Below are positions 11,998-62,707 of a stretch of 64,000 bases of DNA, piece after piece; position 1 is the stretch's first letter, and every line of letters begins with the position of its first letter. The stretch is from Amycolatopsis tolypomycina (GTDB taxonomy: Bacteria > Actinomycetota > Actinomycetes > Mycobacteriales > Pseudonocardiaceae), in assembly GCF_900105945.1 (NCBI RefSeq), contig NZ_FNSO01000004.1, positions 1,984,001 through 2,048,000 of the forward strand, in the 5' to 3' direction. Made by a program: the position numbers and the translations under genes. The notes beneath the pieces were generated by a model, which worked only from the letters and a program-made list of their open reading frames with translations, was not told where the DNA came from and ran no database searches.

Positions 11998-12264
11998 ATG
12001 TCCCAGATCGAGTCCTTCGCCAACTCCGGCGGCTCGCCCGAGCCGCTGGAGGTGCTGACCCCGACGATGGCGGTCGTCTGCACGCCCGCCGTCTTCGCCG
12101 GCGCCTTCGTCGGCATCGGCGTGAACTACGCCTTCGACAAGGCGGTCGACTGGTACGTCGCGCGCCACGGCGGCGGCCACTTCGAGGCCGTCGGTGACGG
12201 TCATGTCCCGGCCGGCGAAATGTCGGGCGACGAGCTGCTGGGACTTCTCGCCGCGCGGTTCTGA
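11998..12264 (+). CDS. Small peptide-family protein P1 (88 aa, unknown function)
   Basis: Begins MSQIESFANSGG, with TAAGGTG upstream of ATG 11998. It has the family layout: [IV]E at positions 4-5, EPLEVL at ~15-20, a single Cys at ~28 (AVVCTPAVF), an Ala/Gly/Phe-rich hydrophobic helix (AGAFVGIGVNYAF), a His/Gly-rich patch (RHGGGHF) and the C-terminal motif SGDELLGLLAARF. There is no Sec signal peptide. It most closely resembles P2, its neighbour 84 bases downstream, in the KAVDWY / KGVDYY segment and C-terminal SGD, so the two look like a tandem duplication. It lies between a sensor kinase and a response regulator. The function (pheromone, RiPP precursor or other) is not established. Confidence 0.75.
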   Translation: MSQIESFANSGGSPEPLEVLTPTMAVVCTPAVFAGAFVGIGVNYAFDKAVDWYVARHGGGHFEAVGDGHVPAGEMSGDELLGLLAARF

Positions 12265-12348
12265 CCGTTCCCGGGCGGGAACGAGACGCGGGGTGAGCCC
12301 CCGTGATTTCGAGCTGATTGTCAATCATCGAACAATGTGGAGAACGCA

Positions 12349-12621
12349 ATGAATTCGGTCGAGTCCTTCGTCAACGTCGGTGCCTCCCTCCAGCCGCTGG
12401 AGATGGTGGTCGGCGCCGCGCCGGTGTCCTGCTTCTGGGCCGCCTTCAACGGCGCGGGTGCCGCCTTCATCGCCAACTGGGCCGTGCAGAAGGGGGTCGA
12501 CTACTACCGGGCCCACCACAACGGCGGCTCGTTCGCCGAGGGCGACGCCCCGGCCGCCCCGGGGCAGGCGTCCGTGCTGTCGGGCGACCAGCTCGTGGCC
12601 CTGCGCGACGGCCGGTTCTGA
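12349..12621 (+). CDS. Small peptide-family protein P2 (90 aa, unknown function)
   Basis: Starts at ATG 12349 with GGAG six bases upstream; a GTG four codons earlier would add only VENA. Sequence blocks: MNSVESFVN, QPLEMV, APVSCFWAAF with the conserved Cys at ~28, GAGAAFIANWAVQKGVDYY, an Asn/Gly-rich link, and SGDQLVALRDGRF at the end. The P-V-S-C-F motif is identical in P3 at 32932, 20 kb away, although the rest of the two proteins is very different, which marks the Cys region as functionally important. It is followed by a strong terminator. Confidence 0.75.
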   Translation: MNSVESFVNVGASLQPLEMVVGAAPVSCFWAAFNGAGAAFIANWAVQKGVDYYRAHHNGGSFAEGDAPAAPGQASVLSGDQLVALRDGRF

Positions 12622-12639
12622 CCGGTACCGGCACGAACC

Positions 12640-12670
12640 GACGGGCCCGGTGTGTGACGCCGGGCCCGTC
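12640..12670. terminator. Bidirectional terminator between P2 and the response regulator
   Basis: A perfect 11-bp stem, GACGGGCCCGG with CCGGGCCCGTC, with a 9-base loop and TTCGTT after it on the plus strand. It separates P2 from the convergent response-regulator gene. Confidence 0.8.
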
Positions 12671-12684
12671 TTCGTTCCCGGGGT

Positions 12685-13392
12685 TCAGGTGCTGATCAGG
12701 TAGCCGAAGTTGCGTACCGTGCGGATCAGCTCCTGGCCGAGCTTGCGCCGCAGGTAGTACACGTAGGTTTCGACGACCCCGAAGTCGCCGTGCGCGCCGT
12801 GGCCCCACACCGCGGCCAGCATGTCCGCTTTGGACACCGGCTTGCCGGGGTTCGCCATGAGGTGGCACAGCACGTCGAACTCCGTGGCCGACAGCTGGAC
12901 CGGCACGCCGTCCTTCCACACCTCGCGCGTGGCGCGGTCGAGCTCGAGCCGGCCGACCTGCAGCCGCGCGCAGGACGGCGCCGGGTGCGTGCCGCGGCGC
13001 AGCAGGACCTCCACCCGGGCGACCAGTTCCTTGATGTCGAACGGCTTGGCGACGTAGTCGTCGCCGCCGAGGGTGAGCCCGTGCACCTTGTCGTCGGTGG
13101 ACTGGCGGGCGCTGAGGAACATGACCGGCGCTGTGACGTCGGCGGCGCGCAGCCGCCGGTAGACCTCGAACCCGTCGAAGTCGGGCAGCATCACGTCGAG
13201 CAGCACGACGTCCGGCGCGGCGGCGGCCGCGGCCCGGAGCGCCTCCCGGCCGGTGCAGGCCGTGACGACGTCGTAGCCGAGGAACTGGAACGTGGTGAAC
13301 AGGATCGCGGCGATGCTCACCTCGTCGTCGGCCACCAGCAACCGGCCGCGCGGTGCGGCGGGCATCGCCGGTTCCGGGGACCATCCGGGCAT
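12685..13392 (-). CDS. OmpR/PhoB-family response regulator
   Basis: A 235-residue two-domain regulator. The receiver has all key residues: the acidic pair in VADDEVSI, phosphoacceptor Asp in VVLLDVMLPDFDG, Ser in MFLSARQ and Lys in DYVAKPFD. The C-terminal winged helix carries LSATEFDVLCHLM and VVETYVYYLRRKLG. ATG 13392 is preferred (AGAGG about eight bases upstream) over GTG 13401. It lies 142 bases downstream of PucR copy 3 on the same strand. The sensor kinases at 10267-11706 and 16285-17541 are both candidates for its partner; the former is closer and on the same strand. Confidence 0.9.
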   Translation of the reverse strand: MPGWSPEPAMPAAPRGRLLVADDEVSIAAILFTTFQFLGYDVVTACTGREALRAAAAAAPDVVLLDVMLPDFDGFEVYRRLRAADVTAPVMFLSARQSTDDKVHGLTLGGDDYVAKPFDIKELVARVEVLLRRGTHPAPSCARLQVGRLELDRATREVWKDGVPVQLSATEFDVLCHLMANPGKPVSKADMLAAVWGHGAHGDFGVVETYVYYLRRKLGQELIRTVRNFGYLIST

Positions 13393-13533
13393 CGGGGTCA
13401 CCTCTTTCGGCCGTGCTCGCGGAAACCCGCGCCGAATCGGGAGTTCATCTCCGGCCGCGGGGGTCGCACGAAACGTGAGAAGTGTTCGGGAAATTGCGCG
13501 GCGGGCAGGCCGGAAGGGCAAGCCGAATGTTGC

Positions 13534-14691: not shown

Positions 14692-14936
14692 GGCATGACC
14701 CCCGGTTCTGACCTGTGGATTCGCGGATGGGTGTGCCGAATCTAGCGGGGGCCGAACGGCGGGGTAATCAGAGCCATCGGGAAAGGTTTCAGCGATTTGC
14801 GTAAGCGCCCCGCTGCTGCAGGAAATGGATGGGCTTACGGGCAAGAAGTGTGCCCTGATTCACCGGTGTACGGGCGGTTGGTCAATTGAACCATTTCGAA
14901 GTGGGCGTGGTACAGGGGATCTGTCGGCGAACGCCG

Positions 14937-15108: not shown

Positions 15109-15143
15109 GGAGTGGATTTCGGCTCGTGAAGAAAGGCAGCAGC

Positions 15144-18671: not shown

Positions 18672-18701
18672 CGGTTCCCCTTCGTTGCCAAGGAATGGTT
18701 G

Positions 18702-32931: not shown

Positions 32932-33243
32932 ATGAATCTTGTTGAGACTGCCGCGGCCAAGCTGTTCGCCGAGGACCCGGCGGTGCGGACGCTCCAGGTC
33001 ATCGAGGCCGAGAAGCCGGTGAGCTGCTTCATCGGCGACATCGCCCGGGTCGGCTGGGCCGCGCTCCGCGCCGCGGAAGCGGCGACGAACCACGCCGAGG
33101 CCAACCGCGCGGCCGCGGCGCTGATGCGCGCCCACGGCTTCGGCGGCTACGACGACGCCGCCGGCCTGCCCGCCCAGGGTGCCGTGTCGTTCGGTGAGCT
33201 GTCGACCACGGACCTGATCGCGCTGCGCACGTCGTTCGCCTGA
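32932..33243 (+). CDS. Small peptide-family protein P3 (103 aa)
   Basis: ATG 32932 is preceded by GAAGGAA. It begins MNLVETAAAKLF, with TLQVIEAEKPVSCFIGDIA placing the conserved P-V-S-C-F at ~30-34. A long Ala-rich helix (WAALRAAEAATNHAEANRAA) follows, then HGFGGYDD, and the C-terminus is STTDLIALRTSFA. Its ending and the GFGG motif pair it with P4, which is encoded convergently 130 bases away (AVTDLIAARTAHC, RGFGGNAVA), so P3 and P4 are the closest pair here. It lies between the two halves of the metallophore cluster. Own promoter region and terminator. Confidence 0.75.
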   Translation: MNLVETAAAKLFAEDPAVRTLQVIEAEKPVSCFIGDIARVGWAALRAAEAATNHAEANRAAAALMRAHGFGGYDDAAGLPAQGAVSFGELSTTDLIALRTSFA

Positions 33244-43736: not shown

Positions 43737-44039
43737 TTGAACCGCATCGAAGAAACGGTCCGGACGCTCGGTGCCGACCTGGGTCTCGAACCGCTCGACG
43801 CGACCGTGGTGCACACCCCGGTGCTGTGCGCCACGCTGGTCGACGCCGCCGTCGGCGCCGGTGCCTTCGCCGCGCGGGCGACCCGGCACGCGATCGTCGA
43901 GACCCCGGGCCGGCGGGCTTTCGCCACGTTCGACCAGGGTGTGCTGCACAACCCGCGGCACGAGGTCAACACCGCGTCGCTGCACGGCCTGACCGACGCG
44001 CTGCCCTGCGGGTCGCTGCTCGGCATCGCCAACGGCTGA
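43737..44039 (+). CDS. Small peptide-family protein P5 (100 aa)
   Basis: Start is TTG 43737 with AGGAG six bases upstream. It begins MNRIEETVRTLG, then LEPLDATV at ~17-24, HTPVLCATLVDAAVGAGAF with the Cys at 31, and ASLHGLTDALPCGSLLGIANG, a C-terminal motif with an extra Cys and a longer tail than its paralogues. It lies just after the NRPS gene, but the 119-base gap has its own TTAGCC-like -10, so it is probably transcribed separately. A strong terminator follows. Confidence 0.72.
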   Translation: MNRIEETVRTLGADLGLEPLDATVVHTPVLCATLVDAAVGAGAFAARATRHAIVETPGRRAFATFDQGVLHNPRHEVNTASLHGLTDALPCGSLLGIANG

Positions 44040-44175: not shown

Positions 44176-45108
44176 GTGACCGTCATCATCGGTTCCCCCC
44201 ACGAGTTCAACAGCGACGACCTCTACGTCGACCTGCGTGCGAGCGCGGGTGTCCCGCTGTTCCTCAAGTGCGAAGGGTTCAACTTCGCGCGCTCGATCAA
44301 GCTGAAGGCGGCGACCGAAATGGTCGAGGGCGCCGAACGTCGTGGCGTGCTGCGGCCGGGGATGACGATCGTGGAGTCCTCGTCGGGCAACCTCGGCGTG
44401 GCGCTGAGCATGCTCGCGGCCAGCCGCGGCTACCGGTTCGTGTGCGTCACCGACAGGCACTGCACGCCGTCCAGCCGCCGCATGATGCAGGCGCTGGGCG
44501 CGCAGGTGCACGTGGTGACCGAACCCAAGGCGGACGGCGGTTTCCTCGCCGCGCGCATCGAGCACGTCCGCGCGTTGTGCGCGGCCGAGCCCGGCACGGT
44601 GTGGCTCAACCAGTACAGCAGCCCGGACAACTGGGGCGCGCACTACCGCCGGACCGGCCCGGAGCTCCTGGCCGCCTTCCCCGGCCTCGAAATCCTCTTC
44701 GTGGGCGCCGGGACCACCGGCACCCTGATGGGCTGCGCGCGCTACCTCCGCGACCGGCGGCACCCCGCCGTGGTGGTCGCGGTCGACGTCGTGGGGTCGG
44801 TGACGTTCGGCGGGCCGCCCGGGGTGCGCAAGATCCCCGGCCTGGGCACCGGGATCCGGCCCGCGCAGCTGGACGAGTCCTATGTGGACGACGTGGTCGT
44901 CGTCGAGGAGCGCGAGACCGTCGCGACGTGCCGCGAGCTCGCCGGGCACGGGTTCGTCTTCGGCGGCTCGACCGGGACGGTCGTCAGCGGCGCCCGCCGG
45001 TGGCTGGCCCGGCACCGGCCGGGGGCCGACGTGGTCGCCGTGGCGATCGCGCCGGACCTCGGGGACGGCTACCTGGACTCGGTCTACAACGACGACTGGG
45101 CGCTCTGA
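44176..45108 (+). CDS. sbnA: SbnA-like N-(2-amino-2-carboxyethyl)-L-glutamate synthase
   Basis: A 310-residue PLP enzyme of the cysteine-synthase fold in the SbnA branch, which joins O-phospho-L-serine and L-glutamate; SbnB then releases 2,3-diaminopropionate. The PLP Lys lies in FNFARSIKLKAATEM, the Asn loop in SSSGNLGVALSM, the phosphate loop in GAGTTGTLMG, and the C-terminus has GFVFGGSTGTVVSG. GTG 44176 is the start; the ribosome site is weak and the message may be leaderless. It overlaps the convergent M16 gene by 25 bases. Its presence with SbnB shows that the strain can make Dap for this cluster, although neither megasynthase has a Dap-type A domain. Confidence 0.9.
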   Translation: MTVIIGSPHEFNSDDLYVDLRASAGVPLFLKCEGFNFARSIKLKAATEMVEGAERRGVLRPGMTIVESSSGNLGVALSMLAASRGYRFVCVTDRHCTPSSRRMMQALGAQVHVVTEPKADGGFLAARIEHVRALCAAEPGTVWLNQYSSPDNWGAHYRRTGPELLAAFPGLEILFVGAGTTGTLMGCARYLRDRRHPAVVVAVDVVGSVTFGGPPGVRKIPGLGTGIRPAQLDESYVDDVVVVEERETVATCRELAGHGFVFGGSTGTVVSGARRWLARHRPGADVVAVAIAPDLGDGYLDSVYNDDWAL

Positions 45109-46358
45109 TACGCGCGCCGCTCGTCGCACAGCAGGACGGTGATCGCGCGGTCCGGCGCCAGGTACGTGCGCGCCGCCGCCGTCACCTCGTCCGGGGTCAC
45201 CGCGGCGAGCCGGGCGTCCTGGCCGCCGAGCCAGGACACCGGCAGCCCGTGCAGGTCGAGCTCGCCCAGCGTCGCGGCCAGCCCGGTCAGCGTGGCCAGC
45301 CGCAGCCGCAGCGTGCCGACGGAGTAGCGGCGGGCGCGGTCCAGCTCCTCGGTGGTCACCGGCCGGTCGGCCAGCCCGGCCAGCTCGGCGACGACCTCGT
45401 CGACGGCCGCGGCCGTGTTCGCCGTGACGACGTCCAGGGACACCGTGGCGAGGTGCGCTTCGTCGACGTGGAGCAGGGAACTGCGCGGCGAGTAGGAGAA
45501 CCCCTTGTCCTCGCGGATGTTCTGCACGAGCCGGGAGGAGAAGTAGCCGCCGAAGACCATGGCGGCGAGCGCCAGCGCGGGGTAGTCCGGCGCGTCGTAG
45601 CGGGGGACGGGCATGGCCATCCGCAGCAGCGACTGCGACACGCCCGGCTCGTCGACGACCGACCGGCCGGGCACCCACGGACCGGGCGGGCGCATGGGGG
45701 TGGCCGGCCCCGGCGGCCAGCTGCCGAGCGCGCGTTCGACGTCGTCGAGGGCCGCCACGGGCTCGAAGTCGCCGACCAGCACGAGGCAGGCACCGGTGGG
45801 GACGACCCGTTCGGCGTGCAGCGCCCGGACGGCGTCCCGGCCGACCCGGGTGAACTCGCCGGGGCGCGGGGCGGGCCTGCCGTAGGGGTGGTCGCCGAAC
45901 ATCCGGGTGTTGAGCGCTTCGGCGACGTGCTGGGCGGGGCTCGCCAGGACGGCGATCGTGCCCTGCACCGCGTTGTCGACGGTGAGCGCGAACTCGCCGG
46001 CCGGGTAGCCGGGGTCGGTGACGACTGCGCCGAGCAGGGCGAGGAACTTGGGGAGCTGGTCGGCGAGCACGCTGCCGGCGATGCGGAGCCGATCGGCGTC
46101 GACGGCCGCGGACAGCCCACCGCCCATGGCCCGCACGCGGTCCTGGGTGCGGGTCTCGTCGGCGAGCGCGGCCGCGAGCAGGACGGCGGCCGGGGCGTCG
46201 GCGTGCGCGAAGGGGATGCTGAGGCAGAGTTCCGCGAGCGGGGTGCTCGCCCGCCGGGAGGCGAGCACGCGAAGGCCGTTCGCCAGGGTCCGCTCGTGGA
46301 CGGCGGGCACCCGCAGCGGGCCGGGGGCGGGGACATCGAGCAGATCGAACGCGGTCAT
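45084..46358 (-). CDS. M16-family peptidase-like protein lacking the zinc motif
   Basis: A 424-residue protein with the two-lobe M16 (insulinase/PqqF-like) fold. The inverted zinc motif HxxEH is absent; the corresponding N-terminal region reads TPLAELCLSIPFAHADAP...ALADET. The second lobe keeps the conserved substrate-binding Arg/Tyr region (FGGYFSSRLVQNIREDKGFSY). This is the pattern of the non-catalytic subunit in heterodimeric M16 enzymes (mitochondrial MPP alpha, bacterial paired M16). GGGAG precedes ATG 46358. Its catalytic partner is encoded upstream at 46936-48243, 577 bases away across a repeat array. Confidence 0.88.
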   Translation of the reverse strand: MTAFDLLDVPAPGPLRVPAVHERTLANGLRVLASRRASTPLAELCLSIPFAHADAPAAVLLAAALADETRTQDRVRAMGGGLSAAVDADRLRIAGSVLADQLPKFLALLGAVVTDPGYPAGEFALTVDNAVQGTIAVLASPAQHVAEALNTRMFGDHPYGRPAPRPGEFTRVGRDAVRALHAERVVPTGACLVLVGDFEPVAALDDVERALGSWPPGPATPMRPPGPWVPGRSVVDEPGVSQSLLRMAMPVPRYDAPDYPALALAAMVFGGYFSSRLVQNIREDKGFSYSPRSSLLHVDEAHLATVSLDVVTANTAAAVDEVVAELAGLADRPVTTEELDRARRYSVGTLRLRLATLTGLAATLGELDLHGLPVSWLGGQDARLAAVTPDEVTAAARTYLAPDRAITVLLCDERRAYQSAQSSL

Positions 46359-46833: not shown

Positions 46834-46840
46834 TGGGGCG

Positions 46841-46885: not shown

Positions 46886-46935
46886 GGCCGGCGGCCGCTC
46901 GCTCGGTTGTGCCCGGCCGAGCGGGCGCACGCGAG

Positions 46936-48243
46936 TCACCGCGCCGCTCCCGGGTGCAACTCGACCGTTGCCCGGCGCTGCGGGCGCAACGTGGCCGCCG
47001 CGGCCTGGACGTCCGCCGACGTCACCGCTCGCGCCAGGGGGCCCAGCTCGTTGATCAGCTCCGCTCCGCCGTGCTGCAGCTCGAACACCGCCAGGTGCCG
47101 GGCCCGGCCCGCCAGGCCGTCGAGCGTGCGGACCAGCTGCGCGCTGATCGTCCGGGTCGCCGCCGTCAGCTCGGCCGGCTCCGGACCTTCCGCGGCGAGC
47201 CGGGCCGTCTCCTCGTCGATCGCGTGCAGGATCGCGTCGGTGCCCGGGCCGCCCGGGGCCGGGCTCGCCGTCAGCACCAGGCACGTCGGGTCGCGGACGC
47301 CGAACACCTCGCCCGTCAGGCCCAGCGAACAGTCCACTGAGGACACCCAGCGGTCGCGGCGCACCAGCCGGCGCGTCAGGCGGCCCAGCGCCGTGTCCGT
47401 CAGCAGCAGGCACAGCACCAGGTAGGCGAGGTACCCGCGCAGGTCGGCCGCCGGATCGGGGACCCGCCACGCCGACGCGAACACCGGCAACGGCGCCAGC
47501 GGGTCCACGAAAGAGCTCCGCCGCTCGGCCGTCAGGTCCGGCTCGGCGATGACCGGCCGCGAAGGCACCGGGCGGCCCGGGATGTCCGCGAAGTACCGCT
47601 CGGCGAGCTCGATCCCGCGTTCGGCGGACACGTCGCCCGCCAGGCACAGGACCGCGTTGCCGGGCGCGTAGTACCGCGAAAAGAACGCCTGCGCCTGGTC
47701 CGTCGTCGCCGTGCGGAGCTCGTCGATCGCGCCGTAGCCGTTGTGCGCGTTCTCGAACGTGTCGAACACCAGCGGCGCCAGCTGCAGCCACGGGAAACCG
47801 CCGTAGGGGCGGGAAATGATCGCCCCGGTGATCTCCTCGGCCACCACGTCGATCTGGTTCGCCAGGCTCGCCGCCGTCAACGCCGGCGCGCGCATGCGGT
47901 CGGCCTCGAGGAACACCGCGTGCTCCAGCCCGGACGACGGCAGCACCTGGTAGTACTCCGTGTAGTCCAGGTGGGTCGTGCCGTTGAAGACACCGCCGCA
48001 GCTCTGCACGTAGTGCGCGTGCGCCCCGCGCGGCAGGTTCACCGACCCCTGGAACATCAGGTGCTCGAAGAGGTGCGCGAACCCGCTGAAGCCCCGCGGC
48101 TCGGAGCGGCTGCCGACGTCGTAGGCCACCGTGACGGCGACGACCTCGGCGTCGTGCGCGGGCGCGACCAGGACCCGCAGCCCGTTCGGGAGGACGTGCG
48201 GGGTGAGCGGGTAGCGCCGATCGGCGCGCAGCGTCGTGTCCAT
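46936..48243 (-). CDS. M16-family zinc metallopeptidase (catalytic subunit)
   Basis: A 435-residue peptidase with the inverted zinc motif HLFEH (FSGFAHLFEHLMFQGS, ~residue 57) and the downstream ligand Glu in DVVAEEITGA (~76 residues later, as usual). The preceding segment VTVAYDVGSRSEP is typical of the family. M16 enzymes cut extended peptides and in bacteria often occur in RiPP clusters (PqqF, AlbE/AlbF), removing leaders. ATG 48243 has no clear ribosome site. It is divergent from the HTTM-ABC operon and, with the inactive partner at 45084, is the best candidate for a processing protease acting on the small peptides. Confidence 0.9.
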   Translation of the reverse strand: MDTTLRADRRYPLTPHVLPNGLRVLVAPAHDAEVVAVTVAYDVGSRSEPRGFSGFAHLFEHLMFQGSVNLPRGAHAHYVQSCGGVFNGTTHLDYTEYYQVLPSSGLEHAVFLEADRMRAPALTAASLANQIDVVAEEITGAIISRPYGGFPWLQLAPLVFDTFENAHNGYGAIDELRTATTDQAQAFFSRYYAPGNAVLCLAGDVSAERGIELAERYFADIPGRPVPSRPVIAEPDLTAERRSSFVDPLAPLPVFASAWRVPDPAADLRGYLAYLVLCLLLTDTALGRLTRRLVRRDRWVSSVDCSLGLTGEVFGVRDPTCLVLTASPAPGGPGTDAILHAIDEETARLAAEGPEPAELTAATRTISAQLVRTLDGLAGRARHLAVFELQHGGAELINELGPLARAVTSADVQAAAATLRPQRRATVELHPGAAR

Positions 48244-48429
48244 GACGTCGCCACGCTAGCCGTTTCGGCCGGTCCCCGGCGCAAGGTCATCACTTCGGCG
48301 GATGCCGTTTCCGTTTTTCACGGAACAGCGGATCCACCGCATTGACGAGGCTGTTTCCGCCGTGTGAAAACGGTTTCGCCGCCGGTGATGGTCATCGAGC
48401 GGGGCGTACGAACGACAACGGAGCGACGC

Positions 48430-49287
48430 ATGGCACAGGCGGAAGTCATCCCGGGCGGGATGCTCGGCGTCGACAAGGCGCTGCGCGAGACCGAACTGCT
48501 CATTTCGGCGGGCATCATCCTCAGTTCGCTGGAATCCCTGGTGCGGCCGCAGGACGTCGAGGACGACGGCCTCATCAGCTGGCGGATCGGGCGGACCCGG
48601 TCGAAGCGGATGGCACGGGGCAAGACCGGCGAGATCTTCGACAAGGTGTTCACCAGCCCGGGCATCCAGGTGCTGACTTCGTTGCGGCTCACCGCTTCGA
48701 CGCTGGTCGCCCTGCCCGGTACCAATCGGCAGACCAAGGCCGCGGCGATGACGTTCCTCGCCGTCTCCAACGTCCTCATGCAACTGCGGAGCAACTACGG
48801 CGCGGACGGTTCCGACCACGTGAACCTCGTTGTCTGCGCCGCGCTGGCGGCCAGCAAGTTCTTCCCGAACGACGAAAAAGCGCGCAAGGCCTGCACCGCG
48901 TTCATCGCCGGGCAGTCGGTCGTCTCCTACTTCGCCGCCGGGCTCGCCAAGGCGGTTTCGCCGTACTGGCGCGACGGCAGCGCGATGCAGGGCATCTTCC
49001 GCACCAAGACCTACGGCCAGAAGCAGGTCGGCGAGATCCTGAAGAAGTACCCGTGGCTGGCCCGCGTCGGCGGCTGGGGCGTGTGGGTCGGCGAAATGCT
49101 CTTCCCGCTCGCGCTGGTCGCCCCGAAGCCGATCGCCGCCGGGCTGCTCGGCACCGGTGTCTCCTTCCACGCCGGCAACGCCGCCTTCATGGGCCTCAAC
49201 CGGTTCCTGTGGGCGTTCAGCGCCACCTACCCGAGCGTCGTCCACCACTCCAAGCACCTCTCCAAGCGCATCACGGCGGGGCGGTAA
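48430..49287 (+). CDS. HTTM-like (SdpB-type) multispanning membrane protein
   Basis: A 285-residue membrane protein. ATG 48430 has GGAG seven bases upstream. Several hydrophobic spans are visible (HVNLVVCAALAASKFF, AFIAGQSVVSYFAAGLAKA, VGEMLFPLALVAPKPIAAGL). The block GLAKAVSPYWRDGSAMQGIF followed by a span, then GVSFHAGNAAFMGLNRFLWA, resembles HTTM-domain proteins, the family that includes SdpB and the vitamin K carboxylase membrane region. In the Bacillus SDP system SdpB with SdpA matures a peptide toxin. It is the first gene of a five-gene operon; the ABC gene starts one base after its stop. Confidence 0.7.
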   Translation: MAQAEVIPGGMLGVDKALRETELLISAGIILSSLESLVRPQDVEDDGLISWRIGRTRSKRMARGKTGEIFDKVFTSPGIQVLTSLRLTASTLVALPGTNRQTKAAAMTFLAVSNVLMQLRSNYGADGSDHVNLVVCAALAASKFFPNDEKARKACTAFIAGQSVVSYFAAGLAKAVSPYWRDGSAMQGIFRTKTYGQKQVGEILKKYPWLARVGGWGVWVGEMLFPLALVAPKPIAAGLLGTGVSFHAGNAAFMGLNRFLWAFSATYPSVVHHSKHLSKRITAGR

Positions 49288-49288
49288 C

Positions 49289-51058
49289 GTGCCCACCGAA
49301 GAGAAGAGGTCCGGCACCCGGACCGTCCTGCGCCTGCTCGCCCCCTACCGGGGCCGGCTCGGCGCCGCCGGCATCGTCGGGCTGGCCAGCGCCATCGTGT
49401 CGCTGATCCAGCCGATGGTCGTCGGCGACGTCGTCGGAGCGCTCACCAGCCGCACGCTCGCGGCCGGGACGCTCGTCCTGCTCGTCTCGCTGTTCCTCGG
49501 CGACATCGTGCTGCGCGTGATCGAGATGTACCTGCTCGGCCGCTGCGGCGCGCTGCTGGTCCTCGACAGCCGCCGCTCCGTGGTGCACCGGCTGCTGCGC
49601 GCGCCGATCAAGGCGCACCGGGAACGCCAGCGCGGTGACCTGTTCGTCGGTGCGGTCGCCGACACCGACCTGCTGCACGGGTCGCTGATGATGGGCATGA
49701 TGAACATCGCCGCGAGCCTCGTGCTCGTCGTCGGCGGGGTCGCCTTCATGGTCTTCATCGACCCGCTGCTCACCCTGGTGACGGTCGCCTGCCTCACGGT
49801 CGCCGCGGTCGGCAGCGTCTTCGTCGCCCGCCAGGTGCGCAAGGCGATGGCGCAGAACCGCGAGGCGGTCGGCCGCTTCGGCGCCGCCCTGCAGCGGGCG
49901 CTGATCGCGATCGGCACGGTGAAGGTCAGCCGCGCCGAGGACCGCGAAGCCGAGCTGGTGCTGACCCACGCCGCGGACGCCACCGCGGCCGACATGAAGG
50001 CGGTGCGGCTGCAGGCCGCGATGACGCCGCTGGTCAACCTCGGCATCCACGGCTCGTTCGCCGTCGTCTTCACCTTCGGCGCGGCCCGGATCGCCAGCGG
50101 CGCGCTCGACACCGCCGGGTTCGCCTCCTACCTGCTCTACCTGTTCTACATGCTGACGCCGCTCATCACGCTGTTCACCAGCTTCGCGCAGATCCAGCTG
50201 GGCGTGGCCGCCGGACAGCGCGTGGAGGGCCTGCTCGACCTGCCGGACGAGCGCGTGACGCCCACCCCGGACGCCGTGGCCGAACCGGTCTTCGCCTCGT
50301 CCGTGCTGGAGTACGACTCCGTGTCGTTCGGCTACGCCGAGGGCAAGCCCGTGCTCAAGGACGTCTCGTTCGCCGCGCTCGAACGCGGGCTGACGGCGGT
50401 CGTCGGCCCGTCGGGCACCGGCAAGACGACGTTGTTCTCGCTCGCCGCGGGCCTGTGGCGGCCGGGCCAGGGGCAGATCCGGCTCGGCGGCGTCGACGTG
50501 GCGTCGGTGGACCTGGAAACCCTGCGCGGCCGGATCGGCTACGTCGAACAGGACGCCCCGGTGCTCGACGGCACGATCCGCGAGAACCTGTTGTACGCCA
50601 ACCCGGACGCCACCGACGCGCAGATCCGGCACGCCGTCGAGCTGGCCCACCTCGCCGACTGGGTCGACGGCCTCGAAGACGGGCTGGAGACGAAGGTCGG
50701 CGAGTCGGGTGCGGCGATCTCCGGCGGCCAGCGGCAGCGGATCGCGATCGCGCGGATGCTGCTGCTGGAACCCGACGTGCTGCTGCTGGACGAAGCCACG
50801 TCGCAGCTGGACGCCGAAGCCGAGCTCGCGCTGCGCAAGGCCGTGGCCGAGGTGGCGCGGGACCGCGCGGTCGTCGCGGTCGCGCACCGGCTGTCCACTG
50901 TGGTCGAAGCCGACCGGATCGTCGTGCTCGACGCCGGGCGCGTCCGGGCGATCGGCGACCACCAGTCGCTGCTGGCCGGCGACGACCTGTACCGGCGTCT
51001 GGTGGCGACGCAGCTGCTGCCCGAAGCCACCGTGCTCACCGCAGGGAGGAACTCATGA
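49289..51058 (+). CDS. Exporter-type ABC transporter (membrane and ATPase domains fused)
   Basis: A 589-residue half-transporter starting at GTG 49289. The membrane domain covers ~1-310 (RLLRAPIKAHRERQRGDLFV is the first coupling loop region). The ATPase domain has VVGPSGTGKTTL, RIGYVEQDAPVLDGTIREN, signature ISGGQRQRIAIARML and VLLLDEATSQLD, all intact, so it could work as a homodimer. There is no N-terminal C39 peptidase domain. Its place between the HTTM protein and the hydrolase suggests export of the molecule made by this operon. It overlaps the hydrolase gene by four bases. Confidence 0.9.
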   Translation: MPTEEKRSGTRTVLRLLAPYRGRLGAAGIVGLASAIVSLIQPMVVGDVVGALTSRTLAAGTLVLLVSLFLGDIVLRVIEMYLLGRCGALLVLDSRRSVVHRLLRAPIKAHRERQRGDLFVGAVADTDLLHGSLMMGMMNIAASLVLVVGGVAFMVFIDPLLTLVTVACLTVAAVGSVFVARQVRKAMAQNREAVGRFGAALQRALIAIGTVKVSRAEDREAELVLTHAADATAADMKAVRLQAAMTPLVNLGIHGSFAVVFTFGAARIASGALDTAGFASYLLYLFYMLTPLITLFTSFAQIQLGVAAGQRVEGLLDLPDERVTPTPDAVAEPVFASSVLEYDSVSFGYAEGKPVLKDVSFAALERGLTAVVGPSGTGKTTLFSLAAGLWRPGQGQIRLGGVDVASVDLETLRGRIGYVEQDAPVLDGTIRENLLYANPDATDAQIRHAVELAHLADWVDGLEDGLETKVGESGAAISGGQRQRIAIARMLLLEPDVLLLDEATSQLDAEAELALRKAVAEVARDRAVVAVAHRLSTVVEADRIVVLDAGRVRAIGDHQSLLAGDDLYRRLVATQLLPEATVLTAGRNS

Positions 51059-52128
51059 ACCGGCTCGCGCTCAAGTGCGGCCTGTCCGCGGCCGCGGGGG
51101 TGCTGACCGCCGTGCCGTTCGCGGCCGGCGCCGTCTACCAGCGGGTGCGGACCCGCCAGGACGACCGGGAGCTGCCCGGGCTCGGCGAGCTCGTCGACGT
51201 CGACGGCCGGAAGGTGCACGTGCGCCGCATGGGCACGCCGTCGCCCGGGCTCACCGTGGTCTTCGAGAGCGGCCTGTCCTCGCCGCTGGAGATGTGGAGC
51301 TGGATCCAGGCGGCGGTCGCGGAGTCCGTCCCGACGATCTCCTACGACCGCGCCGGCATCGGCTGGAGCGAGGCCGGCGAGCGGCCGCGGACGGCCGAGC
51401 GGATCACCGGCGAGTTCGAGCGGCTCCTCGAGGTGCTCGACGTCCGCGGCCCGCTCGTCCTGGTCGGCCACTCCTACGGCGGCATGCTGCTGCGGGCCTT
51501 CGCCCAGCGCCACCCGGACCGCGTCGCGGGCGTGGTGCTGGTCGACGCGGCGCACCCCGAGCAGCTCGAACGCTCGGCCCGGCAGCGCCTCGGCCTGCCG
51601 CTGATGCGGGCGAGCGTGCGCAGCAGCCTGTTCTGGTCCCGCTTCGGCCGCAACCGGCTCCGCAAGGTCGACGACGGCAGCCAGCTCGCGGGCCTCGCCG
51701 AGCGGGAGAAGAACACGACCGTCGCGCGGATGATGACCACCCGCAACTGGAGTGCCTCCGACGCGGAGATCGACGGGTGGCTCGAGCACGTCGTCGACGA
51801 GATCCGCGCGACCACCTTCCCCGCCGACACGCCGTTGTTCGTGGTGACCGCGGAGGAAACCGAGAAGGCCGACCCGGTGCACGGCGAGCTGCAGCGCGAG
51901 CTCGCGGCGATGTCCGCGGTGTCGGTGCAGCAGACCCTGCCCGGGGCCACCCACCTCGGGATGTTGTGCTCGGCCGGGTCCGCCAGGGGCGTGACCGCGG
52001 CCGTCCTCGAAGTCGTCGACGCGGCCCGCACGGGCCGGGCCGTGAAACCCGTCGAAGCCACCGAAGCCACCGAAGCCACCCAAGCCACCCAAGCCACCGA
52101 AGCCGAACCCCCGGGAGAACAGCCGTGA
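51055..52128 (+). CDS. Alpha/beta-hydrolase, membrane-anchored, with repetitive tail
   Basis: A 357-residue protein with AGGGAGGA before ATG 51055. An N-terminal hydrophobic stretch (GLSAAAGVLTAVPFAAGAVY) probably anchors it. The hydrolase core has the nucleophile elbow VGHSYGGML (~residue 142), the oxyanion region FESGLSSPLEMWSW and a C-terminal His in PGATHLGM. The last ~25 residues are a low-complexity tail of EAT/QAT repeats encoded by 9-bp direct repeats (about 52055-52105). Substrate unknown; in the operon it could be a processing or immunity hydrolase. GTGA overlap with the next gene. Confidence 0.85.
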   Translation: MNRLALKCGLSAAAGVLTAVPFAAGAVYQRVRTRQDDRELPGLGELVDVDGRKVHVRRMGTPSPGLTVVFESGLSSPLEMWSWIQAAVAESVPTISYDRAGIGWSEAGERPRTAERITGEFERLLEVLDVRGPLVLVGHSYGGMLLRAFAQRHPDRVAGVVLVDAAHPEQLERSARQRLGLPLMRASVRSSLFWSRFGRNRLRKVDDGSQLAGLAEREKNTTVARMMTTRNWSASDAEIDGWLEHVVDEIRATTFPADTPLFVVTAEETEKADPVHGELQRELAAMSAVSVQQTLPGATHLGMLCSAGSARGVTAAVLEVVDAARTGRAVKPVEATEATEATQATQATEAEPPGEQP

Positions 52129-52676
52129 GCACCTCGACTCGCACCCTCGCCGCGACCGGCGCCCGATTCGCCCTCTACGGCGTCCTCGGCAGCTGGCTCG
52201 TCGCCACCACCCTCAGCCAGGACCCCACCCGCAAGTTCGACAAGATCCGCAAGTGGGACCCGACCGGCTCGCTCATCCCGGACTGGCGGTTCTTCGCGCC
52301 GCGGCCCGGCATGCACGACTACCACCTGCTGATCCGGGACGAGCTGCCCGAAGGCGAGGTGACGCCGTGGAAGGAGTACTGCCAGGTCGAGGAACGCAAG
52401 TGGCAGCACTTCTTCTGGTACCCGGGCCGCCGGGCGGAGAAGGTCGTCACCGACGCGGTGTCGGGGCTGATCCAGATGCAGCCGGACCTCAAGGACCGCA
52501 AGGAGGACGTCCAGGTCTCCGTGCCGTACCTGACCCTGCTGAACTACGCGACCCACCAGGTGCCCCACCACCCGGAGGCCAAGCGCGTGCAGTTCCTGAT
52601 CGCGACGTCCGCGGGCTACGACGAGTCGGAGGAGCCGATGATGCTCTTCCTGTCGAACCCGCACCCGCTGGCCTGA
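52125..52676 (+). CDS. SdpA-like protein
   Basis: A 183-residue protein starting at GTG 52125. One N-terminal span (ARFALYGVLGSWLVATTL) is followed by a soluble part with PDWRFFAPRPGMHDYHLLIR, a P-x-W-x-F-F-x-x-x-P block like that of SdpA-family proteins that accompany HTTM/SdpB proteins. The rest (CQVEERKWQHFFWYPGRRAE, VPYLTLLNYATHQVP) is not recognisable to me. The assignment is by motif and operon company only. Together with the 48430 protein it suggests an SDP-like peptide-processing module. Confidence 0.6.
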   Translation: MSTSTRTLAATGARFALYGVLGSWLVATTLSQDPTRKFDKIRKWDPTGSLIPDWRFFAPRPGMHDYHLLIRDELPEGEVTPWKEYCQVEERKWQHFFWYPGRRAEKVVTDAVSGLIQMQPDLKDRKEDVQVSVPYLTLLNYATHQVPHHPEAKRVQFLIATSAGYDESEEPMMLFLSNPHPLA

Positions 52677-52677
52677 C

Positions 52678-53331
52678 ATGACGGGCGGCGACGGCGTCAC
52701 GGTGCTCGTGACGGGTTCGTTCAGCGTCCCGGCGGACAACATCCGCTGGCTGCGGGCCAACGCGCCGGAGATCGCCGCGGTGGAGCTGGTGGTGGACCGC
52801 GACCAGCTGTGCACCCGGGCGAGCGCCGCCGGCCGGGCGGTGGGGATCGTCGACGCGGCGACCCCGGAGCTGCCGGTGCTCGCCGAGCGGTTCGGCTCGG
52901 TCGCGGTCGGCGGGATCCTCGCGGTCACGGCGAATCCGGCCGAGGACCACGTCGTCGGGCTCTTCGCGCGGGGCGTGACGGGCGTGGTCCTCACGTCCAG
53001 CCCCGCCGAAGAGCTCGTCACCGCGATCCGCGGGGTGGCTTCGGGGCACTGGTTCGCGCCGCCGCGGTACCTGGCGGCGCTGGCCGAGACGGTGGTCCGC
53101 AACCCGCGCGGGCCGCGGGCCCGGCACCTGCGGGAGCTGCTGACCGAGCGGGAGCTGGAAGTGTTGCTGCTGCTGGCTTCGGGGAGCGCGAACCAGGAGA
53201 TCGCCGACGTGCTGGGGATCTCGGTGACGACGGTGCGCAGCCACGTGCTGAGCATCCTGCGGAAGCTGAACGTCCCCAACCGCACGGTGGCGGCGATCTG
53301 CGCCTACCGGTCGGGGCTGGCCGGGGTCTGA
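52678..53331 (+). CDS. NarL/LuxR-type regulator with degenerate receiver
   Basis: A 217-residue protein; ATG 52678 follows the previous stop by one base. The C-terminal HTH is clear (LLTERELEVLLLLASGSANQ, EIADVLGISVTTVRSHVLSI, LRKLNVPNRTVA). The N-terminal domain has the receiver fold with an Asp in GIVDAATPELP, but it lacks the acidic pair (VLVTGSFSV) and the conserved Lys (VVLTSSPAEEL). It is therefore probably not controlled by phosphorylation. Likely a local regulator of the HTTM-ABC operon it closes. Confidence 0.85.
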   Translation: MTGGDGVTVLVTGSFSVPADNIRWLRANAPEIAAVELVVDRDQLCTRASAAGRAVGIVDAATPELPVLAERFGSVAVGGILAVTANPAEDHVVGLFARGVTGVVLTSSPAEELVTAIRGVASGHWFAPPRYLAALAETVVRNPRGPRARHLRELLTERELEVLLLLASGSANQEIADVLGISVTTVRSHVLSILRKLNVPNRTVAAICAYRSGLAGV

Positions 53332-58519: not shown

Positions 58520-58822
58520 TCAGGACAGGCCCGCCAGCAGGTCGATGAGCTGGTGCGCCGGCAGACCGGCGCCGTGCGCACCGGCTCCGCCCGCGGCGGG
58601 CGCGGACGAGCCGGGGTGGAACCCGATGTCGCGGGTGGCGGTGGCGACCGCGCGGCCGGCCGCGTGCGCCCGCTGCGCCGCACGGGCGATCCAGACGAAG
58701 CCGAGCGCGGCGCCTTCGGCGACGTCGACGGTGCACCCCACCACCGGAGCAGCCTGGACCACCGTCAGCGGCTCCGGGCCGGCCGGGTGCGCCGCGGCGA
58801 GAAAAGCTTCCACCTTGTTCAT
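58520..58822 (-). CDS. Small peptide-family protein P6 (100 aa)
   Basis: ATG 58822 has GGAGG five bases upstream. Blocks: MNKVEAFLAAAH, GPEPLTVV at ~15-22, APVVGCTVDVAEGAALGF with one extra residue before the Cys, an Ala/Arg helix (ARAAQRAHAAGRAVATA), a Gly/Ala-rich stretch, and LPAHQLIDLLAGLS at the end. It lies downstream of PucR copy 5 on the same strand but has its own promoter, shared in sequence with P8 and P1. Confidence 0.74.
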   Translation of the reverse strand: MNKVEAFLAAAHPAGPEPLTVVQAAPVVGCTVDVAEGAALGFVWIARAAQRAHAAGRAVATATRDIGFHPGSSAPAAGGAGAHGAGLPAHQLIDLLAGLS

Positions 58823-58875: not shown

Positions 58876-58910
58876 CAGAGCATCCGGTTTCCGGGTGGCA
58901 CATCGACCGG
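58876..58910 (-). promoter_or_regulatory. Candidate promoter of P6
   Basis: On the minus strand CCGGTCGATGTG is followed by 17 bases and GCTCTG. The downstream part (GCTCTGCTGTTCCGG, then ACACCCGGCAT) is similar to that in front of P8 (GCTCTACCGTTTCCGG, then ACACGGCGACAT), indicating a duplicated promoter. Confidence 0.5.
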
Positions 58911-58930
58911 ATGAACGAGATCGGCGGCCG

Positions 58931-61218: not shown

Positions 61219-61605
61219 GCTCACCTCCTCCGGGCGCACGGTACCCGGTGGCCGCGCGCGTTACGCGGGGACGCGGGAATTCCGCGAGACGCGGACGGGT
61301 CTGCGAAGGAAACGCAACCCGCACCGCAGTTCCGTGCTTCTCGGACGCCGGGCCGGCCGCGGCCGGCGCGCTCGCCGTGGCGGCCTCGGCGGCGGCGCGC
61401 AGGTCGAGCACAACTGCACGATGTCGGCCGCGGGTGCGTTCGGTGGCACGTACGAGTTCGGGTGCCCACCAACGCCGCCACCACGCGCTTCACCGCCGCC
61501 GCGAGCTGGAACGGCCGGATTCAGGGCACGGTCACCCGTGCCGCCCGTGATCCCCGGGGCAGCTGCCCGGTGAACCGGCACCGCTCGGTTTTCGGCCACG
61601 CGCGA
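61219..61605. other. Gene-poor stretch with possible decayed ORF
   Basis: No intact gene is supported. On the plus strand one frame reads NCTMSAAGAFGGTYEFGCP (to ~61463) and a shifted frame continues TNAATTRFTAAASWNGRIQG, which together look like a secreted-protein fragment split by a frameshift. The signal is weak and could be chance in high-GC DNA. Confidence 0.25.
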
Positions 61606-61635
61606 AAGCCGGGCCGGCCGCGGCCGGCCCGGCTT
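61606..61635 (-). terminator. 30-bp palindrome, terminator of P8
   Basis: AAGCCGGGCCGGCCG followed immediately by its complement, 12 bases downstream of the P8 stop. Confidence 0.7.
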
Positions 61636-61647
61636 GGGGCGCGGGTG

Positions 61648-61905
61648 TCAGGAAACGCGCTGGGTGCGGGTCTCGAGCAGGTCCTCCAGGGAGAACTTCG
61701 CGGCCCCGGCTTCGCCGAAGTCGACGGGGTCGGGGTGCTGGTGGATCACGCCGTCCTGGCCGCCGGTGATGTTGACCCAGGCGTCGACGGCCTTGTGCGC
61801 GAAGGCGTGGAACCAGGCCTTGTCGGTCTGCGGGAGCCCCATTTCGAGCGGGGCGATCTCCTCGAGCGCGGGAACGCGGGATTCGATGGTGGCTGACGTG
61901 CTCAC
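61648..61905 (-). CDS. Small peptide-family protein P8 (85 aa, divergent member)
   Basis: GTG 61905 with GGAGG four bases upstream. It has ALEEIAPLEMG near residue 20 and the C-terminal motif FSLEDLLETRTQRVS, both family-like, but no cysteine; the Cys region is replaced by KAWFHAFAHKAVDAWVNITG. It also has a His-containing patch (VIHQHPDPVDF). Membership is supported by the C-terminus, size, adjacent divergent member P7, and a promoter that matches that of P6. Confidence 0.65.
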   Translation of the reverse strand: MSTSATIESRVPALEEIAPLEMGLPQTDKAWFHAFAHKAVDAWVNITGGQDGVIHQHPDPVDFGEAGAAKFSLEDLLETRTQRVS

Positions 61906-61949
61906 AGTACCTCCAGGGAGTCGACGGGATGTCGCCGTGTGCCGGAAAC

Positions 61950-61983
61950 GGTAGAGCGCATTCGGCGTCCGGCACATCCACCG
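61950..61983 (-). promoter_or_regulatory. Candidate promoter of P8
   Basis: On the minus strand CGGTGGATGTGCC, 15-17 bases, then GCTCTACC. Same elements as in front of P6 and, for the upstream block, P1. Confidence 0.5.
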
Positions 61984-62173
61984 ATTGACGGGGAAGGGCT
62001 ATTTCCCGATCCGCGAAGTGCGGTGACCGACCGCACACGGCAATCACGGTGAACACTTCTTGAACTCGCTTGGCCGCGTCGCGCGGTCCGTGTCATCGTG
62101 GCGAAAGCGGCCGGTGAATCGAATTCCCGCTGCCGCACGAAAGAGAAACCGAATGTTTCCAGGAAAGGGAATC

Positions 62174-62707
62174 ATGTCCGTGGCCACACCGTCCCGGGTC
62201 GTCACCGTCGCCGATGCCACCGAGTTCGACGCGAGCGCCAACTACCTCACCCCCGCGGTCGCGCCGACGCTGTGCGAAACGGCCGTGCTGGTCGCCGCCG
62301 TCGGCGCCGGTGCCGCGGTCGCGGCCTGCGCGGGGTACGTCGCCAACGCCTGGGCCAACAACTTCGGCCACCACCGCGGGCACCACGGGCACCACGGTGA
62401 CGCCGACGCGCCGCGCGGCCTCGAGGTCGCCGGTGGCTCGGTGGCCGACCTGATCGACGCGCGCGGCGGGCAGTTCGGATTCGCCGCCGAACAGCCCGTC
62501 CAGCCCGTTTCCTGCTATGCCGTGGCGGCGACGGTGGCGGCGGGTGTCGCGACGGCTTTCGCGACCGGTGCGGTGCTCGTCACGGCCGCGCACCATTTCG
62601 GCGGCCACGGTCATTTCGGCGACGACCCGGAATGCACCGTCCCCGAAATCGGCTCCGGTTCCGTGCGCGGCCTGATCGACGCCCGGCTGGCGGCGATCCC
62701 GGCGTGA
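62174..62707 (+). CDS. Small peptide-family protein P7 with two tandem family units (177 aa)
   Basis: ATG 62174 with AGGAAAGGGA upstream. The protein is an internal duplication of the family unit. Unit 1: VAPTLCETAVLVAAVGAGAA, then a His/Gly-rich patch (HHRGHHGHHGD) and SVADLIDARGGQF. Unit 2: QPVSCYAVAATVAAGVATA, AHHFGGHGHFGDD, and SVRGLIDARLAAIPA. Both units keep P-[VT]-x-C and S-V-x-x-L-I-D-A-R, which defines the two conserved parts of the family independently of the other members. The His clusters could bind metal. It is divergent from P8. Confidence 0.75.
   Translation: MSVATPSRVVTVADATEFDASANYLTPAVAPTLCETAVLVAAVGAGAAVAACAGYVANAWANNFGHHRGHHGHHGDADAPRGLEVAGGSVADLIDARGGQFGFAAEQPVQPVSCYAVAATVAAGVATAFATGAVLVTAAHHFGGHGHFGDDPECTVPEIGSGSVRGLIDARLAAIPA

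What the first reader, a model, noticed from the sequence alone, without database searches (positions are those of the whole stretch)
11998..62707. A scattered family of small proteins with a P-[VT]-x-C motif and a C-terminal S-x-x-D-L-I-x-x-R motif
Eight genes (11998, 12349, 32932, 33677-, 43737, 58822-, 61905-, 62174) encode 85-177 aa proteins that share layout rather than overall identity. Six begin M-[NS]-x-[VI]-E with Glu at position 5. Most have a [EQ]PL[EDT] segment at ~15-22, a Cys around residue 28-33 in P-[VT]-x-C or a close variant, an Ala/Gly helix, and a nearly invariant C-terminal motif. Several have strong individual terminators. They sit among PucR regulators, kinases, a metallophore cluster and an M16/HTTM/ABC operon. 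I know no described family with these features. Precursor peptides, pheromones or metal-binding effectors are all possible.
Basis: seen in the sequence. Interest (0 to 1): 0.88.

Follow-up and report, generated by a model that had tools for sequence, protein, structure and literature searches.

The report
Scattered linaridin-like precursors sharing one machinery
The scattered small genes are very probably precursors of peptide natural products related to the linaridins: one soil actinomycete carries about nineteen of them but only one gene set to process them, much as a workshop uses one machine on many blanks.

Summary
The eight ORFs form a real family: 19 genes found in this Amycolatopsis genome and 24 matching ORFs in Kutzneria buriramensis, under purifying selection. 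At E<=0.001 the family and the window's SdpA/LinL-like gene (52125-52676) occur in the same 8 of 80 genus genomes. In 25 of 40 named loci a member lies within 1 kb upstream of an HTTM gene like the window's. That operon (HTTM protein, ABC exporter, alpha/beta hydrolase, LinL-like) matches the linaridin RiPP gene set. The system differs from linaridins: a C-terminal S-x-x-E-L-L-x-x-R-like tail, Thr-poor cores, an M16 gene pair, and many precursors for one machine. A shared upstream element marks part of the precursor genes (12 of 34 regions outside the training genome, 0.34 expected). The HTTM model has the vitamin K gamma-carboxylase membrane fold. No product or chemistry is shown, and no characterised linaridin sequence could be aligned. 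Rated a new variant of a known kind.

The parts
11998..12264 (+). precursor gene, 88 aa (MSQIE...VVCTP...SGDELLGLL)
   Evidence: HMM E 3e-23; ortholog in G057 and G023
12349..12621 (+). precursor gene, 90 aa (MNSVE...PVSC...SGDQLVALR)
   Evidence: G023 ortholog; the G057 ortholog runs off the fetched stretch
32932..33243 (+). precursor gene, 103 aa (PVSC, STTDLIALR)
   Evidence: omega 0.10 to G057 and 0.59 to G023
33372..33677 (-). precursor gene, 101 aa (PTSC, AVTDLIAAR)
   Evidence: omega 0.07 and 0.51; 12-pair terminator-like hairpin 33330-33360
43737..44039 (+). precursor gene, 100 aa, TTG start (PVLC)
   Evidence: no reciprocal best hit in the G057 or G023 stretches fetched
58520..58822 (-). 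precursor gene, 100 aa (VVGC, PAHQLIDLL)
   Evidence: no reciprocal best hit in the G057 or G023 stretches fetched
61648..61905 (-). precursor gene, 85 aa (no Cys; SLEDLLETR)
   Evidence: omega 0.30 and 0.90
62174..62707 (+). precursor gene, 177 aa, made of two fused core+tail units (PTLC...SVADLIDAR; PVSC...SVRGLIDAR)
   Evidence: two separate HMM matches
45084..46358 (-). M16 peptidase subunit with the inactive domain only
   Evidence: PF05193 only
46936..48243 (-). M16 peptidase subunit with HxxEH zinc motif (HLFEH)
   Evidence: PF00675 + PF05193; sequence
48430..49287 (+). LinG-like HTTM membrane protein, candidate modifying enzyme
49289..51058 (+). ABC exporter (LinT-like)
   Evidence: ABC_membrane + ABC_tran (ORF then taken from 49157); 44-46% to two plasmid ABC proteins
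51055..52128 (+). alpha/beta hydrolase (LinE-like), GHSYGG nucleophile elbow
   Evidence: NCBIfam hydrolase matches; 28.5-36% to LinE-type proteins or the C-terminal part of LinH-type fusions
52125..52676 (+). SdpA/DUF5819-like protein, candidate LinL
   Evidence: 33-38% to five proteins in the same place in four linaridin-type plasmid loci; PF19136 at 26 bits, cut-off 27.1
52678..53331 (+). LuxR-type (GerE) regulator
   Evidence: PF00196; same place in several related clusters
48288..48307 (+). upstream element before the HTTM operon (CATCACTTCGGCGGATGCCG)
   Evidence: PWM score 21.0, background 99% 13.7 (training set; not confirmed upstream of the operon genes tested in other clusters)
48328..48347 (-). 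upstream element before the M16 genes (CGTCAATGCGGTGGATCCGC)
   Evidence: PWM score 21.0 (training set; not confirmed upstream of M16 in three other clusters)
11877..11896 (+). upstream element before precursor 11998
   Evidence: PWM score 22.8 (training set); kept in G057 and G023
61972..61991 (-). upstream element before precursor 61905
   Evidence: PWM score 22.8 (training set); kept in G057 and G023
58898..58917 (-). upstream element before precursor 58822 (weaker match)
   Evidence: PWM score 20.0 (training set)

Best explanation
The small proteins are precursor peptides of a linaridin-like RiPP system with scattered precursors and one machine. Proposed working: each precursor has a leader (M-[NS]-x-[VI]-E...PLE), a cleavage site (P-[VT]-x-C here, PVLATP or PVVCTP in relatives), a hydrophobic Ala/Gly-rich core and a C-terminal tail (S-x-x-E-L-L-x-x-R and variants) that acts as a second recognition element or spacer. 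One membrane complex at 48430-52676 (HTTM/LinG, hydrolase/LinE, LinL-like) modifies all of them in trans. The ABC protein exports them, and the M16 pair at 45084-48243 removes the leader and perhaps the tail. A common upstream element co-regulates at least part of the set. SHOWN by computation: the family, co-occurrence, adjacency in relatives, selection, the shared element on part of the genes, the predicted fold of the HTTM protein, the gene-set match. INFERRED: that the peptides are modified, cut at that site, exported, and act as bacteriocins against related actinomycetes.
For: Co-occurrence: family in 8 of 80 genus genomes and LinL-like in the same 8 of 80. In 297 family-level genomes all 13 with precursors have a LinL-like match of at least 235 bits, and the 10 with only weaker LinL-like matches (at most 145 bits) have no precursor among the candidates scored. 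Adjacency: 25 of 40 named loci have a precursor match within 1 kb upstream of the HTTM gene. Gene set: plasmid loci with short PxxxTP precursors, HTTM+hydrolase fusions or pairs and a LinL-like gene align to the window's operon; published linaridin clusters have the same parts (PMC9927463, section 5 and passages). Motif: 16 of 30 adjacent precursors carry PxxxTP and 24 of 30 a loose form of the tail; PVACTP, PITCTP and PVVCTP link the Cys form to PxxxTP. Element: 12 of 34 upstream regions outside the training genome above the background 99th percentile. Selection: omega 0.35 and 0.46. M16 pairs are known or proposed RiPP leader peptidases (PMC10885120, PMC8068269, passages).
Against: No characterised linaridin protein (cypemycin, legonaridin, corynaridin) could be aligned; the LinL-like genes of the plasmid loci used as stand-ins are annotated 'hypothetical protein'. 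At the cleavage site PxxxTP is in 0 of 19 own-genome precursors. Cores are Thr-poor (mean 2.9 Thr in about 50 aa) and no methyltransferase was recognised in the operon. No own-genome precursor lies beside the HTTM operon, unlike in relatives. The tail changes faster than the core between orthologues (pooled omega 0.56 and 0.76 against 0.24 and 0.36), which does not suit a strictly read tag. M16 is found at only 11 of 40 loci. The element is absent from 11 of 21 own-genome regions, 18 of 24 Kutzneria precursor regions, and all 4 operon or M16 regions of the test set. Co-occurrence odds ignore shared ancestry, the 235/145-bit split was seen afterwards, and the models used were partly trained on the same loci. 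No immunity gene was looked for or noticed.
Confidence: 0.8

Rival explanations
1. SDP-type cannibalism toxins: the small proteins work like SdpC, an internal hydrophobic segment being cut out by an SdpA/SdpB-like pair without any residue modification, giving a membrane-active peptide.
For: Relatives of the HTTM protein match TIGR04033 (SdpB) weakly, 12-28 bits. SdpA and SdpB are needed to process SdpC into the internal 42-aa toxin (PMC6818787, passages). The precursors carry a hydrophobic segment. A Brevibacterium survey reports weak sdpABC-like clusters next to linaridin ones in that genus (PMC5719810, passages).
Against: Scores are far below the 178-bit cut-off, and the window protein itself had no match at E<=0.001. 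SdpC is 203 aa with a secretion signal; none is seen by eye in these proteins (no signal-peptide program was run). The hydrolase, ABC and LinL-like set fits linaridins better.
Confidence: 0.1
2. Signalling peptides (pheromones) read by the PucR or LuxR regulators nearby.
For: A PucR gene (58931) lies directly upstream of precursor 58822 and two more (13534, 15126) within about 3 kb of 11998/12349; a LuxR gene closes the operon; many divergent paralogues per genome would suit private signals.
Against: No homologue of the window's PucR genes near the remote paralogues in L076, L077, L080, and only one among the 40 named loci, in Kutzneria. Peptides this hydrophobic are unusual signals (inference).
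Confidence: 0.06
3. The proteins are not precursors but small structural or regulatory partners of the membrane complex (for example chaperones of LinG).
For: Strict co-occurrence with the complex and conserved ends.
Against: 19-24 highly diverged copies for one complex, apparent gene gain and loss, a duplicated fused copy at 62174, and leader-plus-cleavage-site layout shared with PxxxTP precursors.
Confidence: 0.04

Closest known systems
Linaridins (cypemycin, grisemycin, legonaridin, mononaridin, salinipeptins, corynaridin)
   Same: HTTM protein, alpha/beta hydrolase, LinL-like protein and ABC transporter in one cluster; short precursor with leader, P-containing cleavage motif and core; mainly actinobacteria.
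   Different: In the own genome a Cys stands where PxxxTP has residue 4 (18 of 19 genes have the Cys; the following TP is kept in 2 of 19); Thr-poor core; C-terminal tail; M16 pair; 19-24 scattered precursors for one machine; no methyltransferase or decarboxylase recognised in the operon.
SDP toxin system (SdpABC, YitPOM) of Bacillus subtilis
   Same: HTTM/SdpB-type membrane protein with a second SdpA-type protein, substrate with hydrophobic segment.
   Different: No secretion signal seen by eye, weak HTTM match, added ABC exporter, hydrolase and M16 pair; SdpRI not looked for.
Prochlorosins (one ProcM, many precursors; recalled, from no call)
   Same: Many diverse precursors served in trans by one modifying machine.
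   Different: Unrelated enzymes and precursors.
Heteromeric M16 leader peptidases PttP1/PttP2 and LxmP1/LxmP2 (passages)
   Same: Two M16 subunits encoded with a RiPP system, one active and one inactive (so described for LxmP1/LxmP2).
   Different: Those serve lanthipeptides; here the pair sits with a linaridin-like operon.
Vitamin K-dependent gamma-carboxylase (GGCX)
   Different: 12% identity, no counterpart of the rest of GGCX, no sequence-level match; a shared fold does not show the same reaction.

Membership tests
Linaridin RiPP | LinL protein, the gene typically used to identify linaridin clusters (PMC9927463) | tested here: inconclusive
   33-38% identity, E 1e-25 to 1e-35, to five same-position proteins in four linaridin-type plasmid loci; no verified LinL sequence could be aligned
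Linaridin RiPP | HTTM protein and alpha/beta hydrolase (separate or fused), with ABC transporter | tested here: met
   (Pfam HTTM itself below its cut-off); published set described in PMC9927463 section 5
Linaridin RiPP | PxxxTP cleavage motif in the precursor | tested here: not met
   0 of 19 own-genome precursors at the cleavage site; the one match counted lies at residue 75. But 16 of 30 precursors adjacent to LinG in related loci. Hence filed as linaridin-like, not as a linaridin
Linaridin RiPP | Thr-rich core, the Thr being dehydrated to dehydrobutyrine | tested here: inconclusive
   Mean 2.9 Thr in about 50 aa in the own genome; Thr-rich relatives in Microbacterium, Auritidibacter, Brevibacterium. 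Dehydration itself cannot be tested
Linaridin RiPP | N-terminal methyltransferase (absent in corynaridin, PMC9927463) | not tested
   None among the operon genes searched; surrounding genes were not searched for methyltransferases specifically
SDP (SdpABC) | SdpB family model TIGR04033 above its cut-off | tested here: not met
   No match at E<=0.001 for the window protein; three relatives 12-28 bits against 178.4
SDP (SdpABC) | SdpC-like substrate with N-terminal secretion signal | tested here: inconclusive
   No hydrophobic N-terminus seen by eye; no signal-peptide program was run
Heteromeric M16 RiPP leader peptidase | One catalytically competent subunit plus one inactive subunit | tested here: met
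   46936-48243 has PF00675 and HLFEH; 45084-46358 has only PF05193. That they pair is inferred
Heteromeric M16 RiPP leader peptidase | Cleaves the cognate precursor | not testable with these tools
   needs enzyme assay
HTTM / vitamin K carboxylase fold | GGCX membrane-domain fold | tested here: met

The most novel reading that the evidence does not exclude
A genome-wide natural peptide library: one quinone-dependent, vitamin-K-carboxylase-like membrane enzyme (LinG) makes a strong base that pulls protons from residues of about twenty different precursors, giving dehydrated or D-residues, with an N-terminal Cys left by cleavage at P-[VT]-x|C. The absolutely conserved Lys174 of LinG (35 of 35 sequences) would play the part of GGCX Lys218, which deprotonates vitamin K hydroquinone (PMC9146348, passages). 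The Lys174-Lys218 match is inferred only from the ranges aligned; the cleavage point within the motif is recalled from cypemycin, not from a call.
Probability: 0.2. Interest if true: 0.88.

Novelty: new variant of a known kind. Interest (0 to 1): 0.64.

Why it matters
If right, linaridin-like chemistry can run on many unlinked precursors at once, which cluster-based mining would miss: of the 19 own-genome precursors none lies within 4 kb of the HTTM operon; the nearest, 43737, is 4.4 kb from it and 1.0 kb from the M16 genes (the eleven outside the window are further). The M16 pair is a concrete candidate for a leader-removing protease, a gene that PMC9927463 says is missing from the corynaridin and other linaridin clusters. 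The gamma-carboxylase fold of the HTTM protein gives the unexplained dehydration and epimerisation steps of linaridins a testable mechanism.

Tried and rejected
Pfam (window precursors only) and NCBIfam gave no family near a cut-off. M16 presence as a marker was dropped: an M16 match at E<=1e-20 is in 80 of 80 genus genomes. A PucR link was dropped, a terminator rule too. LinL fold: model pLDDT 79.8, pTM 0.61, no PDB match at E<=0.001, which says nothing about a new fold. The HTTM profile against PDB sequences found nothing at E<=10. Sigma-70 promoter scan found nothing in the two regions scanned. Papers: no held paper has SdpA, SdpB and HTTM together, DUF5819, or sporulation delaying protein with precursor peptide and actinomycetes. 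One search was swamped by an author name (260,789 papers). 'Linaridin' with 'M16' gave 4 papers: I saw passages of PMC8068269, PMC10885120 and PMC7794033 (lanthipeptide or general context) and only the listing of PMC12291118. Passages only of PMC5719810, PMC6818787, PMC10880069, PMC10373908, PMC9146348; section 5 and passages of PMC9927463. The survey of 561 linaridin clusters (cited in PMC9927463; I take it to be Georgiou 2020, PMC7680433) is not held, so I cannot say these clusters were not noticed there. Other linaridin papers were seen only as references.

Rows dropped and limits: six of 19 own-genome genes had no usable G057 partner (one truncated, five without reciprocal best hit; one G057 hit, C38:77943, was not fetched) and four of 19 had none in G023. 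G057 therefore counts 15 fetched of at least 16. The 24 Kutzneria ORFs include a few short or tail-less ones that may be broken genes, and the G023 partner of 62174 was counted as two ORFs. In one search the pattern missed gene 11998 (VVC) and one Kutzneria gene, whose cores count as zero in the means. Genome searches score only the best first-look candidates (62 per genome, 17, 11), so absences and counts there are bounds. The matrix was trained on own-genome regions. Its 34-region test set gave 6 of 24 Kutzneria regions, 6 of 6 Amycolatopsis precursor regions (some near-duplicates) and 0 of 4 operon or M16 regions. In one search the precursor and LinL models were built partly from the same loci; with the window's single LinL-like sequence 38 of 40 loci matched.


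Full report
WHAT IS THERE. The eight small ORFs are present at the given starts. They match no Pfam or NCBIfam family near a cut-off. A profile of the eight found them and further copies in the same 10.36 Mb genome. The gene at 62174 holds two core-and-tail units.

REAL OR CHANCE. Against 80 genomes of the genus, the 14-sequence profile hits 8 at E<=0.001 and none of the other 72 (62 candidates scored per genome). Orthologues between the own genome and G057 or G023 show pooled omega 0.35 (95% 0.30-0.45, 13 pairs) and 0.46 (0.39-0.55, 15 pairs). The operon and M16 genes run at 0.04-0.28 against G057. So these are coding genes under purifying selection, weaker than that on the machinery. By region, leader, core and tail give 0.39/0.24/0.56 (G057) and 0.50/0.36/0.76 (G023); the core is the most constrained, which I did not expect.

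THE PARTNER OPERON. At 48430-53331 lie, in order, an HTTM membrane protein, an ABC exporter, an alpha/beta hydrolase, an SdpA/DUF5819-like protein and a LuxR regulator, with two divergent M16 genes. The SdpA/LinL-like protein is in 8 of 80 genus genomes, the same 8 as the small family. In five of those genomes (G059, G078, G028, G037, G005) one or two small genes sit between the M16 genes and the HTTM gene. In the own genome no precursor is nearer than 4.4 kb to the HTTM operon. In 297 genomes of the family, 13 have the small family; all 13 have a LinL-like match of at least 235 bits, and the 10 genomes with only weaker LinL-like matches (at most 145 bits) have none among the 17 candidates scored. 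The split was noticed afterwards, and shared ancestry inflates any odds computed from it. The own genome, G023, G057 and G200 show one LinL-like match each.

NAMED RELATIVES. A scan of 84,980 species genomes with two short patterns from the HTTM alignment gave 40 loci, among them Amycolatopsis, Kutzneria, Prauserella, Saccharomonospora, Actinopolyspora, Streptomyces, Streptantibioticus, Leifsonia, Cellulomonas, Microbacterium, Brevibacterium, Auritidibacter, Mycetocola and one Bacteroidota MAG (Saprospiraceae). 39 of 40 have a LinL-like gene, 28 of 40 a small gene at E<=0.01, 25 of 40 one within 1 kb upstream of an HTTM gene, and 11 of 40 an M16 match (two of those weak, about 50 bits). The models were partly trained on these loci; 15 of 40 have no adjacent precursor found. 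Of 30 distinct adjacent precursors, 16 have PxxxTP and 24 a loose form of the tail. Thr-rich versions with a similar tail occur in Microbacterium, Auritidibacter and Brevibacterium.

WHAT IT RESEMBLES. The corynaridin paper (PMC9927463; section 5 and passages read) describes its cluster, like other linaridin clusters, as a precursor with a PxxxTP cleavage motif, LinL, an HTTM protein (G), an alpha/beta hydrolase (E) and an ABC transporter (T), with no leader-protease gene. It reports that corynaridin is cut at the motif and dehydrated at all Thr and Ser. Four plasmid loci found with a LinL-like query have this kind of layout: two with a fused HTTM-hydrolase, one with separate genes, one with both. 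Seven of the nine short ORFs (58-66 aa) that I took as their precursors carry PxxxTP; the Tsukamurella one and one of S. californicus do not. An annotated methyltransferase and ABC protein are in two of the four. The window's HTTM, hydrolase, LinL-like and ABC proteins align to theirs at 32-40%, 28.5-36%, 33-38% and 44-46% identity. These loci are not annotated as linaridin, so the chain to a characterised linaridin rests on layout and motif. The own-genome precursors lack PxxxTP at the site (0 of 19), yet relatives in Kutzneria, G059 and A. vastitatis carry PVACTP, PITCTP and PVVCTP, that is PxxxTP with Cys as residue 4. I therefore call the system linaridin-like rather than a linaridin.

REGULON. 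The element TCAnTTCGGTGGATG lies 50-142 bp, mostly 70-121 bp, upstream of many precursor starts and in the window's divergent HTTM/M16 promoter. TCGGTGGATG with at most one mismatch occurs in 1.0% of random 220-bp stretches, but in 5 of 19, 5 of 15, 5 of 15 and 4 of 24 precursor upstream regions of the own genome, G057, G023 and G200; the three Amycolatopsis sets are mostly orthologous. A matrix trained on the own genome scores 10 of 21 own regions above the background 99% level (training), and 12 of 34 regions of a test set where 0.34 are expected: 6 of 24 Kutzneria regions and 6 of 6 Amycolatopsis precursor regions, but 0 of 4 operon or M16 regions. So co-regulation of part of the precursors is supported; co-regulation with the operon rests on the window alone.

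HOW IT MOST LIKELY WORKS. Leader-bearing precursors made from many loci, partly under a common switch, are brought to one membrane enzyme complex, modified in a hydrophobic core, exported, and trimmed by the M16 pair, giving a mixture of hydrophobic peptides, probably antibacterial against relatives. Modification, cleavage site, export and activity are inferred. The tail is probably removed, since it is shared by cores of very different composition, but its faster evolution argues against an exact recognition tag.

VERDICT. A real and widespread precursor family tied to a linaridin-like machine, with an unusual many-precursors, one-machine layout. That I found no description of it rests on the family scans and paper searches; the main linaridin genome survey could not be read.

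Noticed in passing
46448-46816 and 46840-46891: Twelve copies of a 30-bp repeat (94% match) followed by 3.5 copies of a 15-bp repeat, lying between the two M16 genes; origin and role unknown.
   Followed up: no
2057-3268, 6560-7624, 13534-14844, 15126-16274, 58931-60028: Five PucR/CdaR-type regulators in one 64 kb window (Pfam HTH_30 for the first four; NCBIfam only for the last). The last lies directly upstream of precursor 58822.
   Followed up: partly
18699-26807, 38239-43617, 44176-45108, 5513-6547: Two large ORFs that I took by eye for NRPS genes (no domain scan), a PLP-dependent enzyme beside the second and an ornithine-cyclodeaminase-like gene; could make a diaminopropionate-containing siderophore (inference). 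One search, meant for 16285-38000, failed and was not resent.
   Followed up: no
3265-5436: Sulfate-permease-family transporter fused to a carbonic anhydrase domain.
   Followed up: no
L136, L137, L138, L139: Linaridin-type clusters on plasmids of Tsukamurella, Streptomyces globosus, Streptomyces sp. GBA 94-10 4N24 and S. californicus, not annotated as such; S. californicus has two side by side.
   Followed up: partly
L130:9086-10789: A LinL-HTTM pair with a weak candidate tailed precursor (E 0.009) in a Saprospiraceae (Bacteroidota) MAG, outside the actinobacteria.
   Followed up: no
43737-44039 and 58520-58822: These two precursors have no reciprocal best hit in the stretches fetched from G057 and G023, pointing to gain and loss of precursor genes.
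   Followed up: partly
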